Below are positions 58,880-64,000 of a stretch of DNA of 64,000 bases, in pieces. The stretch covers positions 269,816 through 333,815 of the forward strand of contig JALIHJ010000007.1 of assembly GCA_022984795.1 (NCBI GenBank), given 5' to 3'. How positions within the stretch are numbered: position 1 is the stretch's first letter; every line of letters starts with the position of its first letter. Source of the stretch: Fabrea salina (Eukaryota > Ciliophora > Heterotrichea > Heterotrichida > Fabreidae). The notes under the pieces are model-generated. The model did no database searches. It was given only the letters and a program-made list of their open reading frames with translations, and had not been told where the DNA came from. The translations under genes were made by a program, and so were the position numbers.

Positions 58880-59566
58880 ATGGAAGAACAGAAAGTTGTT
58901 TTTGTGCTGGAAAGTGCGTAAGTTCCAATTAGGACACTAGAAACAGCAAAGTTCCGCAAGTCTAACGAGTACCAACTTCTGACTTCTGAGGAGCATTCCA
59001 ACTTTATTTCCAAAGCAGGCAAGGACCCTGCTGACTACAGGCCAGACATCACACACCAAATGCTCCTTTCGATTTTAGACTCTCCCCTTGCAAAGGCTGG
59101 CAAGGCACAGATCTACATTCACACCTCAAGCAACGTTTTAATTTACGTTTCACCACAAATAAGGATTCCAAGGACCTTCAAAAGATTCTGTGGCTTAATG
59201 ACACAACTCCTCCACACACGCAAAATCAAAGCCTCTGACAACAACAAAGTCCTTATGCGAGTTATCAAAAACCCCATCACAGACCACCTTCCACCTGGCA
59301 GCATGAAAATAGGCACTTCAGTTGAGGGCGAACTAGTGAACATCTACGACTTTGTGAAAGACCCCTCTAAAAAGTTCACTGTGAGTGACCCTAATGAAGA
59401 CCCTGTAGTTCCTGTCTTCGTGATAGGAGCATGTCCCCACGGACACCCAGGTAAAGAGTCTGACTACATCGACACTTGCATTTCCATTTCAAGTTACCAC
59501 TTATCAGGTGCAGCAGTCTCGAACAGAATTGCAGGAGCCTTCGAGTCATTGTGGAACATAGTTTAA
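58880..59566 (+). CDS. EMG1: 18S rRNA N1-methyltransferase EMG1/NEP1 with one 15-nt intron
   Basis: Exons 58880-58917 and 58933-59566; 223 aa, normal family length. Joined N-terminus MEEQKVVFVLESATLETAK aligns with EMG1; then YRPDITHQMLLSILDSPLAKAG, IYIHTSSNVLIYVSPQIRIPRTFKRFCGLM, VIKNPITDHLPPGSMKIGTS, and the C-terminal SPOUT knot FVIGACPHGHP … CISISSYHLSGAAVSNRIAGAFESLW. Methylates a pseudouridine in small-subunit rRNA and is needed for 40S assembly. Without splicing the N-terminal strand would be lost. Confidence 0.96.
58918..58932 (+). other. 15-nt intron (phase 2)
   Basis: GTAAGTTCCAATTAG after a 38-nt first exon. Retention meets TAA after 13 codons. The protein alignment proves the join. 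Confidence 0.95.
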
Positions 59567-59587
59567 CTAAACTTATAATCTTGCATA

Positions 59588-60166
59588 ATGTGGAACTTGT
59601 ACTCGTGCAACTCTGTTTACAGTCAGTTCTTAGCAAAAAAAGAACAAGAACGAAGGAAACTTTCCTTAAGGAGAGTAAAAGCCCAGGTAGACAACAAAAA
59701 GCCAGCAAGGTTCACCCAACAAAGCATTTCTACTTACCGCGGAGGAATCAAACAGGATCGTTACGATCAGATCGAAAAAGAAAACCATATCCTTTTAAAC
59801 AAAATGCTTAACATTGACAAAAAACCATCTAACTTAAACCCTAGAGTTTGCGCCCCCAAAACCAGAAACATTTCTTCAAACAGCAAAAAGAAGCGTGCTC
59901 AAAGCATTTCGAGAATTTCCAGAGAAAACCAGGTAACCCCTACTTAGAAACTCTACCAAAGACTCAGAAATACAAAGTCTGTTTATTCAATTGACAAGTG
60001 GGAAGAGCAAAACCAGTACAGAACCTACATACGTGACAACATCTCTAGGAACTCTTCCCGCTGTGACTCAAGACCCCACACAAGTTCTGACTGGGAAGAA
60101 AACTTTATTAGAAGAATCAAAAGCATCAAGAAAAACAAATCAACAAACTATGAACCTGTAGACTAA
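59588..60166 (+). CDS. CFAP97-like ciliary protein with one 15-nt intron
   Basis: Exons 59588-59932 and 59948-60166; 187 aa. A basic N-terminal half with the REREIxxEN-type motif (RYDQIEKENHILLNKMLNI) resembles the KIAA1430/CFAP97/Hemingway domain. The rest is Ser/Lys/Asn rich (SSNSKKKRAQSIS…). CFAP97-family proteins are axonemal. Exon 2 is basic with several Ser/Thr. The call rests on the short EN-x-LL motif only. Confidence 0.55.
59933..59947 (+). other. 15-nt intron (phase 0)
   Basis: GTAACCCCTACTTAG. The unspliced frame would stop at its TAG; removal adds 72 residues. Confidence 0.88.
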
Positions 60167-60177
60167 GTAGTTAAGTC

Positions 60178-61623
60178 TTAATTGTAATGCCACTCAGGGT
60201 CAGCTTCAATGAACAAGTAGCCGTCCATCACTGAAACTGTTCCGTCGTTGTAAGTGGCGTGTTTGGAGTTGGGCAGAGGAATCCCTTGTTGCAGTAGCTT
60301 CTTGTCAATAGTAGGCAAGGCAGCCTCAATAATAAAGTTGAGTGTTAGTTCAAGGTCTTTAACATCGATGTTAGTGTTTAGGGTGTTTTCCACTACCTTT
60401 ATTGACTCTACCTCCAAGTCGTCTAAGTCGTAGTTCAGAACCCAGTCCTTTACTATTGCTGTGGTGTTGAACTGTATTGAGTTTTGGAAAATAGCAACAG
60501 TGTTGACTCCCTCGACTTGCACTGCACAGTTCAAGTCAATGGTTCCTTGAATGAGGCCTTTGCCCTGGCCTACAGAGCCAAAGCACTGGATGTTGGGCTG
60601 GGCGTTGGCGTTGCAGTAAAGGTTGCAAGGCTTGTCTTTTCCGTACTTAGCAGACATTCCAGGTATAACGTTGTCCAGCGAAGTAGTGTCTAGGTGCACT
60701 GGAGAACTAGAAGGAATCATTTGGTCAGTAATGTTGTAGGTGATTATGTCTATTTTGTAAGCTGCGTATAAACCTGTGTTCAGGGTGTAATCAGTCAGCA
60801 TGATCTGGATTTGTTTCCCTTTGCTTTCAAAGCCCGGCAAGTTAGTAGGTGCTTTTACAGGCGGGTTGTAGTCAGGGTCGTTGGTGTCTATGAATATTCC
60901 CAGAGCTTGGATTTCAGTGTAGTCGTTTGTGACAATGGGGTCAGAAGTAAGTGAGTAGTCAATGGCTATTGGGTAGTTGTCGAACTTCGAGTAAAGGGTG
61001 ATTGAAGACAAGGACTCGTCAATCGACTTCTGGAGTGACCCCTGGATTGACTTGTTCATGTCGTTTTGTATGTCTCCCTTGAGCTTGTTGTTGAAGAGAC
61101 TAGTGATCCAGTTCGAAATGTCGCCTATCAAACTGTGGTCAAACTTAATGTCTAGTTTTTCAACGTAGACACTGGAGTTGTCGATGGTCACTACTGGTTT
61201 TCCGTTCCTTTCAGATATCGTCATTTGTACTTCGCAGTTAGTTTGCGAAATCTCGATGTTTCCAGACCCGTCTCCGTGGCCTATTGGGAAGCTGTAGTGG
61301 TACTTGAAGTCAGTTTTGGCGTACATTCCTTCGATTTTCAGAATGTACTTGTTGGGAGTGCTGAACAAGAACGCAGAGTCACTGACACTGAAGTTTATTC
61401 CGTAAAGCACTATGTCGTACACTTCAACTTTGATTTCGTACCAGTCCTTGCCGATTTGGCCTTGTTGGTCAGGAATTTGAATGTTGCCTATTCCTTTGAT
61501 CACTCCTGGCAGAGCTGCTGTTTTAAGTGACTCAAGCATTGCCTCAGTGAAACCCAGTTCCATTCCTACGTTTGAGCTCATTGCCACTCCTAGTAGGCCT
61601 AGATACACAAGCACCAGTTTCAT
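60178..61623 (-). CDS. secreted BPI/LBP-family lipid-binding protein
   Basis: 481 aa. Signal peptide (MKLVLVYLGLLGVAMSS). N-terminal BPI1-like domain (GFTEAMLESLKTAALPGVIKGIGNIQIPDQQGQ … ISERNGKPVVTIDN … ITSLFNNKLKGDIQNDMNKSI) and a second, BPI2-like, half (LGIFIDTNDP … IEAALPTIDKKLLQQGIPLPN). Several predicted N-glycosylation sites. The family binds lipids/LPS in secreted or luminal compartments; in protists the role is unclear (defence or food-vacuole lipid binding). Three Cys near 335-350. Confidence 0.82.
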   Translation of the reverse strand: MKLVLVYLGLLGVAMSSNVGMELGFTEAMLESLKTAALPGVIKGIGNIQIPDQQGQIGKDWYEIKVEVYDIVLYGINFSVSDSAFLFSTPNKYILKIEGMYAKTDFKYHYSFPIGHGDGSGNIEISQTNCEVQMTISERNGKPVVTIDNSSVYVEKLDIKFDHSLIGDISNWITSLFNNKLKGDIQNDMNKSIQGSLQKSIDESLSSITLYSKFDNYPIAIDYSLTSDPIVTNDYTEIQALGIFIDTNDPDYNPPVKAPTNLPGFESKGKQIQIMLTDYTLNTGLYAAYKIDIITYNITDQMIPSSSPVHLDTTSLDNVIPGMSAKYGKDKPCNLYCNANAQPNIQCFGSVGQGKGLIQGTIDLNCAVQVEGVNTVAIFQNSIQFNTTAIVKDWVLNYDLDDLEVESIKVVENTLNTNIDVKDLELTLNFIIEAALPTIDKKLLQQGIPLPNSKHATYNDGTVSVMDGYLFIEADPEWHYN

Positions 61624-62460
61624 TTTTTATTCACCAGCTTTTAATCTAGTGCTTTTGTTCAAGAATCACGAACTACACTCCTTAGTTTAGACTGTGTTTC
61701 TGACAACTTAGTTTTTCACTGTTGTAGGGCCTCTTTCTACTAGTTACACTTGTTTATTGTTGTCTCTGATTATCTATGCCTAATTCCAATTAATTCACAA
61801 AATAGCTAGACAATTCTTTGGTAACTCTAATTGCAAGTAACAAAGCAAGGTTGGCTGGACTCCAATAAACTGGTTAAAATCTAAGCTTTCTAAGAACTGA
61901 TTCTTGTTCCTTTAAATTTTCCAGACCTTTTCTGGTACTGCCTGATAAATGGAGCCTGGCTTGATTGCAAGTGGAAGTGGTGATAGCACCATCATGATTT
62001 AGAGGAAACCCAGAAAATTATTTAACTTTACAGAAGTGAGTGACCTGAGTCCCATTCTAGAGGTATTTAAGTTTCTACAGAGAAGTAACTATTCGTCTTC
62101 TCGGATCAATCTGTTTAAGTTCTGTTAGGTGAGACTCAGAGTTGTCTTCGTTGATTTCTTGCTTTGTTTGTACTGTGCATGAACATTGTGATGACTAGCT
62201 TAGTATGCAGATGCTCTAATTACTTATTCACAGCTATGTTGTCTTCAGACTTCTCTCTGATGGGTGTCCACTCATAACTTTCCAAGTTTACTCACTGCCT
62301 CCAGCCTTCTATGTCCTAGACTTTAACTTAGTAAACTCACATTGCTAATCAGAATCCCGTAGACTCTAAGATGATCTTTCAGACATCACCCTAACCCATT
62401 GATTAATTCAACCAAGTCCTAGTTGCTATAACCCAGTCAAACTCATATCCCCCTAATTCA
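61624..62460. other. 837-bp gene-free subtelomeric stretch
   Basis: The longest gap in the window. No ORF, tRNA or repeat array is seen. A weak C/D snoRNA-like pair (GTGATGA at 62188-62194, CTGA at 62257-62260, 73 nt) was noted but lacks a convincing stem. It ends in AT-rich sequence before the next ATG. Confidence 0.5.
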
Positions 62461-63372
62461 ATGGCTAATAAAATGTTCAGTCGAGTCGTCCGCAACTTCC
62501 ACAAGCTCAGAGTTCCCCAGGGATACTCCGGAGACTTGAGACTTTACAAGTTCAGATTCGAAAGGTTCACCCAGGGAGAGAATATCGCTGAAATAGGCGG
62601 AAAGTCCTTATTAGCAAATACTGACGGCATTGTGTGGAAAAAGCTCAAGCAAGACAACCTCACTGTTGAGGAAGGCACAGAAATCTACGAAGTCGTCAAC
62701 TTCCCTCCTTGGCTAAGAATGATTCCTCCGAATGCACTTATATCCTTCCTCGCACTCTTTGTGGCCTACCTGGCCTACATAAACCAAAAGAAATTCAACA
62801 AAGAACAACTTCAAAACAATAATATAGAGATCGGACTTAAAGACCCCCAATTCAGCGTCCAAAAAATCAAAGAGACCTTGACTCAGCCCAAGCTAGCACC
62901 TAGAGTTAAAGGGACTTTGATTGAAAACCCTGAACTTACTCGTTGGTGGATTGAACACCTTGAAGAGCCCATTGAGAGAGGAGTGGACGTGGTCTACGGA
63001 CCCAAAGGCATAGGCAAGTCTACCTTTATGGAGAGACTTTGCCATGTGCTTAGCAACCCTGGCACGCTCAAAAAGTACTCAGACACTAAGACCCAGTTCG
63101 TTTCTTTTTACCTGGACTTGGAAGCCAGAAAAGACACTCTATGGAAGAACTTATATTCCAGACTGGGAGTTAAGGGGTACTCAACCAACGACGAAGTTCT
63201 GTTTGAAGAGTGCCTAGAAGAACTGGTCAAGGAGCGCAAAAAACCCGTTCTAATCTTTGACAACGTCCAGCATATTCTACTTGAAGTCGATAACTATTCA
63301 GAAGGTGCCAACTTCATCAGAAAGCTTATACTCAACTTTAGTGCAAAGGGTGTTAGGGTGTTAGGGTGTTAG
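62461..63372 (+). CDS. P-loop NTPase gene truncated by telomere addition
   Basis: About 296 native residues (62461-63347), then VRVLGC and a TAG stop encoded by telomere repeats. N-terminus is basic and amphipathic (MANKMFSRVVRNFHKLRV), like a mitochondrial targeting sequence, and one TM helix lies at ~95-112. The NTPase domain (~170-296) has Walker A GPKGIGKST and Walker B PVLIFDNVQHI, as in STAND/archaeal-type ATPases. The domain is cut before the sensor and lid regions, so the encoded protein here would be incomplete. Confidence 0.8.
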   Translation: MANKMFSRVVRNFHKLRVPQGYSGDLRLYKFRFERFTQGENIAEIGGKSLLANTDGIVWKKLKQDNLTVEEGTEIYEVVNFPPWLRMIPPNALISFLALFVAYLAYINQKKFNKEQLQNNNIEIGLKDPQFSVQKIKETLTQPKLAPRVKGTLIENPELTRWWIEHLEEPIERGVDVVYGPKGIGKSTFMERLCHVLSNPGTLKKYSDTKTQFVSFYLDLEARKDTLWKNLYSRLGVKGYSTNDEVLFEECLEELVKERKKPVLIFDNVQHILLEVDNYSEGANFIRKLILNFSAKGVRVLGC

Positions 63373-64000
63373 GGTGTTAGGGTGTTAGGGTGTTAGGGTG
63401 TTAGGGTGTTAGGGTGTTAGGGTGTTAGGGGGTTAGGGTGTTAGGGTGTTAGGGTGTTAGGGTGTTAGGGTGTTAGGGTGTTAGGGTGTTAGGGTGTTAG
63501 GGTGTTAGGGTGTTAGGGTGTTAGGGTGTTAGGGTGTTAGGGTGTTAGGGTGTTAGGGTGTTAGGGTGTTGGGGTGTTAGGGTGGGGGGGGGTGTTAGGG
63601 TGTTAGTGTTAGGGTGTTAGGGGTTAGGGTGGGGAGGGTGTTAGGGTGTTAGGGTGTTAGGGTGTTAGGGTGTTAGGGTGTTAGGGTGTTAGGGTGTTAG
63701 GGTGTTAGGGTGTTAGGGTGTTAGGGTGTTAGGGTGTTAGGGGTGTTAGGGTGTTAGGGTGTTAGGGTGTTAGGGTGTTAGGGTGTTAGGGTGTTAGGGT
63801 GTTAGGGTGTTAGGGTGTTAGGGTGTTAGGGGTGTTAGGGTGTTAGGGTGTTAGGGTGTTAGGGTGTTAGGGTGTTAGGGTGTTAGGGTGTTAGGGTGTT
63901 AGGGTGTTAGGGTGTTAGGGTGTTAGGGGTGTTAGGGTGTTAGGGTGTTAGGGGTGTTAGGGTGTTAGGGTGTTAGGGTGTTAGGGTGTTAGGGTGTTAG
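63348..64000 (+). repeat. telomere, (GGGTGTTA)n
   Basis: About 653 bases of the 8-mer GGGTGTTA in G-strand orientation, running to the window end. Most units are perfect. Variants include a 9-mer GGGGTGTTA (near 63740, 63830, 63930, 63955), a missing TGT (GGGGGTTAGGG near 63427) and a scrambled patch with runs of G at ~63570-63640. This is the heterotrich-type repeat (CCCTAACA on the C-strand). Confidence 0.97.

What the first reader, a model, noticed from the sequence alone, without database searches (positions are those of the whole stretch)
62461..64000. Telomere added inside an open reading frame
The P-loop NTPase frame runs without break into the telomere at 63348 (…TTTAGTGCAAA|GGGTGTTAGGG). 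The junction needs no filler and the repeats supply the stop TAG. Either the macronuclear chromosome is fragmented at alternative telomere addition sites, or this gene exists intact only on longer versions. In ciliates, telomere addition within genes would create truncated proteins from a fraction of the ~many chromosome copies.
Basis: partly seen in the sequence, partly recalled or inferred. Interest (0 to 1): 0.75.

Follow-up and report, generated by a model that had tools for sequence, protein, structure and literature searches.

The report
Telomere capping a cut subtelomeric gene
In this ciliate-like genome a chromosome end has been sealed with telomere repeats in the middle of a gene; the gene is one of dozens of similar copies near chromosome ends, many of them intact, so this is a real but ordinary case of a telomere landing a little further in than usual.

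Summary
An open frame (62461-63372) runs into a 654-bp GGGTGTTA array that ends the contig; the array is in phase from 63347, without filler, and the repeats supply the stop at 63370-63372. The genome (18.3 Mb, 103 contigs) is probably the macronuclear genome of the heterotrich Fabrea salina (inferred).

The gene belongs to a P-loop NTPase family seen at 52 contig ends, plus 7 likely ones, pointing outward. Of 28 distinct copies read, 23 are full (466-491 codons), with median dN/dS 0.31. The closest copy (C43 right end, 97.7%) runs through the joint and has 1,855 bp more before its own telomere.

Many ends share this block, and telomeres cap it at scattered points, from 2.3 kb beyond the gene to 0.6 kb inside it; the window is the innermost of 19 mapped ends. 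Two of 29 telomere joints read lie in long ORFs: this one and minichromosome C5.

No longer version of this end was found in the assembly; reads were not available, so coexisting versions remain untested. Telomeres inside genes are known from Paramecium bursaria and Plasmodium. A new member of a known kind.

The parts
62461..63346 (+). 5' part (codons 1-295 and the first base of codon 296) of a subtelomeric P-loop NTPase gene; Walker A GPKGIGKST and Walker B-like VLIFDN kept (motif names recalled), about 195 C-terminal residues missing relative to the intact 491-aa paralog
63347..63350 (+). AGGG fitting both gene and telomere repeat at the joint (4-nt overlap)
63347..64000 (+). terminal telomere array (GGGTGTTA)n, 654 bp, end of contig C70
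63370..63372 (+). TAG stop supplied by the telomere repeat
62077..62460 (+). upstream non-coding part of the shared subtelomeric block (homologous to C43 right end and others)
60178..61623 (-). neighbouring subtelomeric gene, BPI/LBP/CETP-like; 97% identical copy near the other end of the same contig

Best explanation
The end of chromosome C70 was formed by de novo telomere addition to a broken or cut end that lay inside the last subtelomeric gene. SHOWN: many chromosome ends share a subtelomeric block with an outward-pointing P-loop NTPase gene, and telomeres cap that block at many different points. About half of the mapped caps (9 of 19) lie 1.8-2.3 kb beyond the gene, others lie nearer or just behind it, and in C70 the cap lies at codon 296. 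INFERRED: telomerase started on a 3' end finishing in ...AAAGGG, which already matched the repeat, and the cap became the stable end. The truncated copy then encodes at most a 303-residue protein without the end of the ATPase core and the C-terminal part, very likely inactive, which would matter little because dozens of intact copies remain. Whether the cut arose in the germline or during macronuclear development is not decided; the first two rivals below are the two sub-cases of this explanation.
For: The telomere is clean from its first repeat. Paralog C43R is 99.5% identical over the 400 bp before the joint and goes on for 1,855 bp to its own telomere. Cap positions relative to the gene's 3' end on the shared block: C70R -587, C10R about +40, C83L +50, C18L about +370, C91L +380, C36L about +584 (weak match), C20R +649, C9L +956, C29R +1230, C43R +1268, and nine left ends (C7, C11, C1, C10, C8, C15, C14, C12, C13) from +1816 to +2271. 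C5 carries telomeres at both ends; C39 continues past its left joint, and C76 ends where C5 runs on. Four-base overlap at the C70R joint, 1.0% by chance with random phase. The 295 whole codons left carry no stop or frameshift, and dN/dS against C43R is 0.40, within the family range of 0.20-0.49, so the cut looks recent.
Against: No reads, so the depth of the joint is unknown. No germline sequence, so the pre-break sequence is taken from paralogs. Overlap at the other joints looks small (read by eye: 0-3 nt; C5L 1 nt), so priming by repeat-like sequence is not a general rule here. If ends were cut at random most joints would lie in genes (coding fraction 0.925 in the window up to 61623), whereas 27 of 29 do not: a simple random-break model fails, and either cutting is targeted to non-coding sequence or in-gene caps are selected against.
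Confidence: 0.8

Rival explanations
1. Coexisting versions: in the polyploid macronucleus some copies of this chromosome end at 63347 and others run on through an intact gene.
For: Alternative telomere addition sites are numerous in the related heterotrich Blepharisma (PMC9942806, section read). In this genome C5, C76 and C39 are overlapping, differently capped fragments of similar sequence.
Against: No contig other than C70 was found with the window flank 59500-60178. C5, C76 and C39 differ by 1-6%, so they may be alleles or paralogs rather than versions of one locus.
Confidence: 0.35
2. Fixed truncation (a sub-case of the best explanation): the germline chromosome itself lost the distal end, all copies end here, and the gene is a pseudogene.
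For: The assembly gives a single clean end and no longer version was found. C70 is a mosaic with other ends (97% to its own left end up to about 61747, C43-like from about 62077), so its end has been rebuilt by exchange before.
Against: The rest of the frame is undamaged, so if fixed it is recent. Cap positions vary widely between chromosomes, which suggests variable end formation.
Confidence: 0.4
3. Assembly artefact: telomere reads were joined to the gene by the assembler.
For: The family is repetitive and the overlap at the joint is only 4 bases.
Against: 29 of 31 contig ends checked carry telomeres (C3 and C17 left do not), and a second in-ORF joint exists on C5. The overlap is in phase and the repeats are clean from the first unit. 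The array length lies within the range at other ends (126-1428 bases read, some of them cut by the fetched piece).
Confidence: 0.07
4. Functional short form: the truncated gene makes a useful protein lacking the C-terminal part.
For: The frame is intact up to the joint.
Against: It loses the strand after Walker B and a C-terminal part that is present in all 23 aligned full copies with many invariant columns and a lower dN/dS than the rest (0.257 against 0.330); the new tail is dictated by the repeat.
Confidence: 0.03

Closest known systems
Alternative telomere addition sites in ciliate macronuclei (Blepharisma stoltei PMC9942806; Paramecium bursaria PMC7702705; review PMC7599177)
   Same: De novo telomeres at scattered positions, including inside coding regions (about 30% of sites in P. 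bursaria, passage seen); same repeat unit CCCTAACA as Blepharisma; two-telomere fragments such as C5.
   Different: There the sites are seen as mixtures of reads; here only the assembled end is visible, and in-gene joints are rare (2 of 29 read; 1 of 18 telomere-bearing left ends of C1-C20).
Telomere healing in Plasmodium falciparum subtelomeres (PMC5550746)
   Same: Telomere repeats inside the coding region of a subtelomeric multigene family, leaving a pseudogene (4 of 28 ends of strain 3D7; passages seen).
   Different: A repair pathway in a haploid parasite's only genome; here probably a polyploid somatic genome made by programmed fragmentation (inferred), and the gene is an NTPase, not a var gene.
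ATPase_2 / AAA_22 P-loop NTPases (Pfam PF01637, PF13401)
   Same: The intact paralog scores 48.3 and 46.1 bits against cut-offs of 33.2 and 27. Foldseek lists the archaeal Walker-type ATPase 2qen first, and ORC proteins among the hits.
   Different: It has an N-terminal region with a probable membrane helix (read from the sequence); the predicted model is of low confidence (mean pLDDT 57.9), so fold matches carry little weight. What the protein does is not known.

Membership tests
Alternative telomere addition site (ciliate macronucleus) | Telomere positions heterogeneous over kilobases of otherwise shared sequence | tested here: met
   19 ends mapped from -587 to +2271 relative to the gene's 3' end; shown between chromosomes, not within one locus
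Alternative telomere addition site (ciliate macronucleus) | Other molecules of the same locus continue past the site | tested here: inconclusive
   Not seen in the assembly: no other contig was found with the C70 flank (40 of 88 candidates scored); reads not available. For C5, C76 and C39 similar sequence continues at 94-99% identity
Alternative telomere addition site (ciliate macronucleus) | Minority of reads at the site carry telomere | not testable with these tools
   no reads
Telomere healing of a subtelomeric break | Telomere repeats fused directly into a coding region with loss of distal subtelomere | tested here: met
   (frame into the repeats); the C43R paralog has 1,855 bp beyond the homologous point
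Telomere healing of a subtelomeric break | Break sequence offers a telomerase primer (repeat-like overlap) | tested here: inconclusive
   4-nt overlap AGGG at this joint, 1.0% by chance with random phase, 7.8% with best phase; other joints 0-3 nt by eye
Breakage at a fixed chromosome breakage sequence (Tetrahymena/Euplotes type) | Joints at a fixed distance from a shared sequence | tested here: not met
   Joints lie at many different points of the same block; no motif search was made, and germline-limited motifs could not be examined
P-loop NTPase, ATPase_2/AAA_22 | Profile score above curated cut-off, Walker A motif | tested here: met
   truncated copy; intact paralog; motif names recalled

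The most novel reading that the evidence does not exclude
The shared subtelomeric block with its outward NTPase gene acts as an expendable buffer. Chromosome ends are re-capped at shifting points through it in the macronucleus, sometimes inside the gene, so that each end carries a mixture of full and truncated copies and family dosage is set by where telomeres land; exchange between ends then restores full blocks.
Probability: 0.2. Interest if true: 0.55.

Novelty: new member of a known kind. Interest (0 to 1): 0.3.

Why it matters
It gives a ladder of natural telomere caps along one homologous block in a very compact ciliate-like genome, so the choice of telomere position can be compared across chromosomes. 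The in-gene cap itself follows patterns known from Paramecium bursaria and Plasmodium.

Tried and rejected
Random breakage as the sole cause of ends was rejected: the coding fraction of the window up to 61623 is 0.925, yet 21 of the 23 joints first tested had no long frame, later 27 of 29.

Microhomology as a general rule was not supported (read by eye).

Structure prediction of the intact paralog gave a low-confidence model (mean pLDDT 57.9); the Foldseek rows shown have TM 0.16-0.27 by query length and are used only as a hint. A search of solved structures by sequence gave no hit better than E 0.012.

The Fabrea genome paper (10.1093/molbev/msac062) is not held, so the species is inferred from size (recalled 18.35 Mb), telomere unit and code. 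Whether that paper describes these ends is unknown. Listings of searches showed no paper on the ends of this genome; absence from print is not claimed.

Dropped rows: duplicates L030, L033, L034 and L035 (the same genes as L011, L017, L009, L010) and copies under 380 codons (L031, L032) were left out; the family dN/dS used the 23 copies of 460 codons or more, so L004 (395), L005 (386) and the truncated L001 were left out of it; 252 of 253 pairs passed the filter (dS above 0.02 and defined). Other copies without a full C-terminal match exist and are not cut by a telomere as far as read: C36L (to residue 394, own stop, telomere about 0.8 kb further); C38L (to 388) and C68L (to 405) were seen without reading their telomere joints.

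Full report
OBSERVATION. The frame 62461-63372 is open from ATG into the terminal array and reads ...LILNFSAKGVRVLGC*. The array is 654 bp long, period 8, and the window's last base is the end of contig C70 of an 18,328,466-base, 103-contig genome. The joint is at 63346/63347, with AGGG (63347-63350) fitting both gene and repeat. The stop TAG at 63370-63372 is inside the repeats. Since the unit is 8 bases long, every frame meets TAG within 24 bases, so the stop itself means nothing.

ORGANISM. The unit GGGTGTTA is the CCCTAACA repeat of Blepharisma (passages; section). The genome size is near the 18.35 Mb that I recall for Fabrea salina; Fabrea is reported to use the canonical code (passages), and the window's ORFs are open under it. 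The assignment is an inference; the genome paper is not held.

THE GENE. Pfam places it among P-loop NTPases: ATPase_2 43.4 bits (cut-off 33.2) and AAA_22 42.8 bits (cut-off 27) for the truncated copy, 48.3 and 46.1 for the intact paralog. The six-frame search of the own genome with the 491-aa paralog gives 95 matches, with 87 of 99 candidates scored. By my count of that table they lie at 39 left contig ends (all on the minus strand, that is, outward) and on 20 contigs on the plus strand. Contig length is known for 13 of these 20, and there the copies end within about 4.1 kb of the right end (outward); for the other 7 (C30, C35, C37, C44, C46, C47, C82) the distance was not checked. One further match, C25:65780-66967 on the minus strand (41% identity), is not near the left end. 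Thirty-seven matches run from residue 5 or earlier to 480 or later without an inner stop. Of 28 distinct copies whose sequence I read, 23 have full frames of 466-491 codons. Among these 23 the median dN/dS is 0.31 (range 0.20-0.49, 252 pairs), so the family is under purifying selection.

WHAT IS MISSING HERE. The closest paralog is the C43 right end (97.7% over 887 bp; 99.5% over the last 400 bp). At the joint the close paralogs read AAAGGGACTAGCC or AAAGGGATTAGCC, and the intact C43R copy continues for about 195 more residues. C70 keeps residues 1-296. Seven nonsynonymous and five synonymous changes fall on the C70 branch with C29R as outgroup, with no stop or frameshift, so the cut looks recent.

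CAPS ON A SHARED BLOCK. In one search, 22 telomere-bearing ends were compared with other fetched ends. For 14 of them the sequence before the telomere matches other ends at 89-99% up to within 25 bases of the joint (12 over about 400 bp; C2L over 77 bp and C18L over 200 bp only); for 8 (C4, C5, C6, C12, C13, C16, C19, C20 left) no such match was found among the fetched sequences. Placed on the block, the telomere starts at these distances from the NTPase 3' end: C70R -587, C83L +50, C91L +380, C20R +649, C9L +956, C29R +1230, C43R +1268, C7L +1816, C11L +1885, C1L +1907, C10L +1969, C8L +2019, C15L +2057, C14L +2059, C12L +2083, C13L +2271 (C12, C13, C14, C29 and C43 from their own gene). C18L (about +370) and C10R (about +40) are placed from their own gene, and C36L (+584) by a weak match. 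C70R is the innermost of these 19. C19L has its gene 5.1 kb from the telomere.

A SECOND CASE. Contig C5 (11,043 bases) has telomeres at both ends. Its left telomere interrupts a frame open for 1,427 codons of a protein with a PKD domain; the tail is VRVLGC, as in the window. The homologous stretch of C39 (94% over 4,991 bp) continues in frame past the joint (L041). C5's other part is 98% identical to C76:62809-66791, and C76 itself ends in telomere at about 66849, where C5 runs on. C76 has 62 kb more on the far side, but the homology right at C5's right joint was not read. These are overlapping fragments of similar sequence with different caps; at 94-99% identity they may be alleles or paralogs.

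HOW COMMON. Of 31 contig ends checked, 29 carry telomeres and 2 (C3 and C17 left) do not. Two of the 29 joints lie in frames of 100 codons or more: C5L and C70R; C76R has 82 codons and the other 26 have at most 54. C70R was chosen because of its joint, and several other ends were chosen for their interest. In the unselected set, the left ends of C1-C20, it is 1 of 18 with telomeres. With a coding fraction of 0.925 in the window, random cuts would give far more (2 or fewer of 23: probability 6e-22). So ends avoid genes, by targeting or by selection, and the window shows an exception.

LONGER VERSIONS. A search with window 59500-62075 finds the full stretch only in C70 itself; positions 59500-60178 match nothing else (40 of 88 first-look candidates were scored). 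The left end of C70 matches at 97% from about 60179 to 61747. So no longer version of this end was found in the assembly. This is evidence against a common longer version, but not proof, because assemblies usually show one version of an end.

COMPARISON. P. bursaria has about 30% of its telomere addition sites in coding regions (passage). In Paramecium sites often scatter over about 1-2 kb, with alternative sites 2-13 kb apart (passage). Blepharisma has many alternative sites (section). In P. falciparum 3D7, 4 of 28 ends have telomere repeats inside a truncated var gene (passage). The finding is therefore a new member of a known kind.

'Most caps at 1.8-2.3 kb' became 9 of 19; C18L became about +370; the coexistence feature became inconclusive, because one search scored 40 of 88 candidates; C76R was read further.

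Noticed in passing
window 1-61623: TGA is nearly unused: 0 of 42 non-overlapping ORFs (150 codons or more) end in TGA (36 TAA, 6 TAG), and reading TGA as sense gives 1 in-frame TGA against 176 TGG. In 200 kb of chromosome ends 9 of 57 ORFs of 200 codons or more end in TGA, and reading through gives 22 in-frame TGA against 352 TGG.
   Followed up: partly
window 60178-61623 (-): A BPI/LBP/CETP-like gene with a 97% copy near the other end of the same contig (C70:2952-4535) and 70-74% matches near other contig ends.
   Followed up: partly
window 61747-62077: Subtelomere mosaic: to about 61747 the right end resembles C70's own left end (97%), from about 62077 it resembles the C43 right end, which suggests exchange between ends.
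   Followed up: partly
L021, L026, L028, L029, L033, L034 (telomere starts of C1, C6, C8, C9, C13, C14 left): Several telomeres begin with one or two repeats, then a few to some tens of bases of other sequence, then the regular array: decayed or re-capped inner repeats. The window's joint is clean.
   Followed up: no
L027 (C7 left end): Three outward NTPase copies in a row at one end.
   Followed up: no
L025, L044 (contig C5) and L047 (C76 right end): An 11-kb contig with telomeres at both ends overlaps C76 and C39 with different caps, three telomere joints in one neighbourhood.
   Followed up: partly
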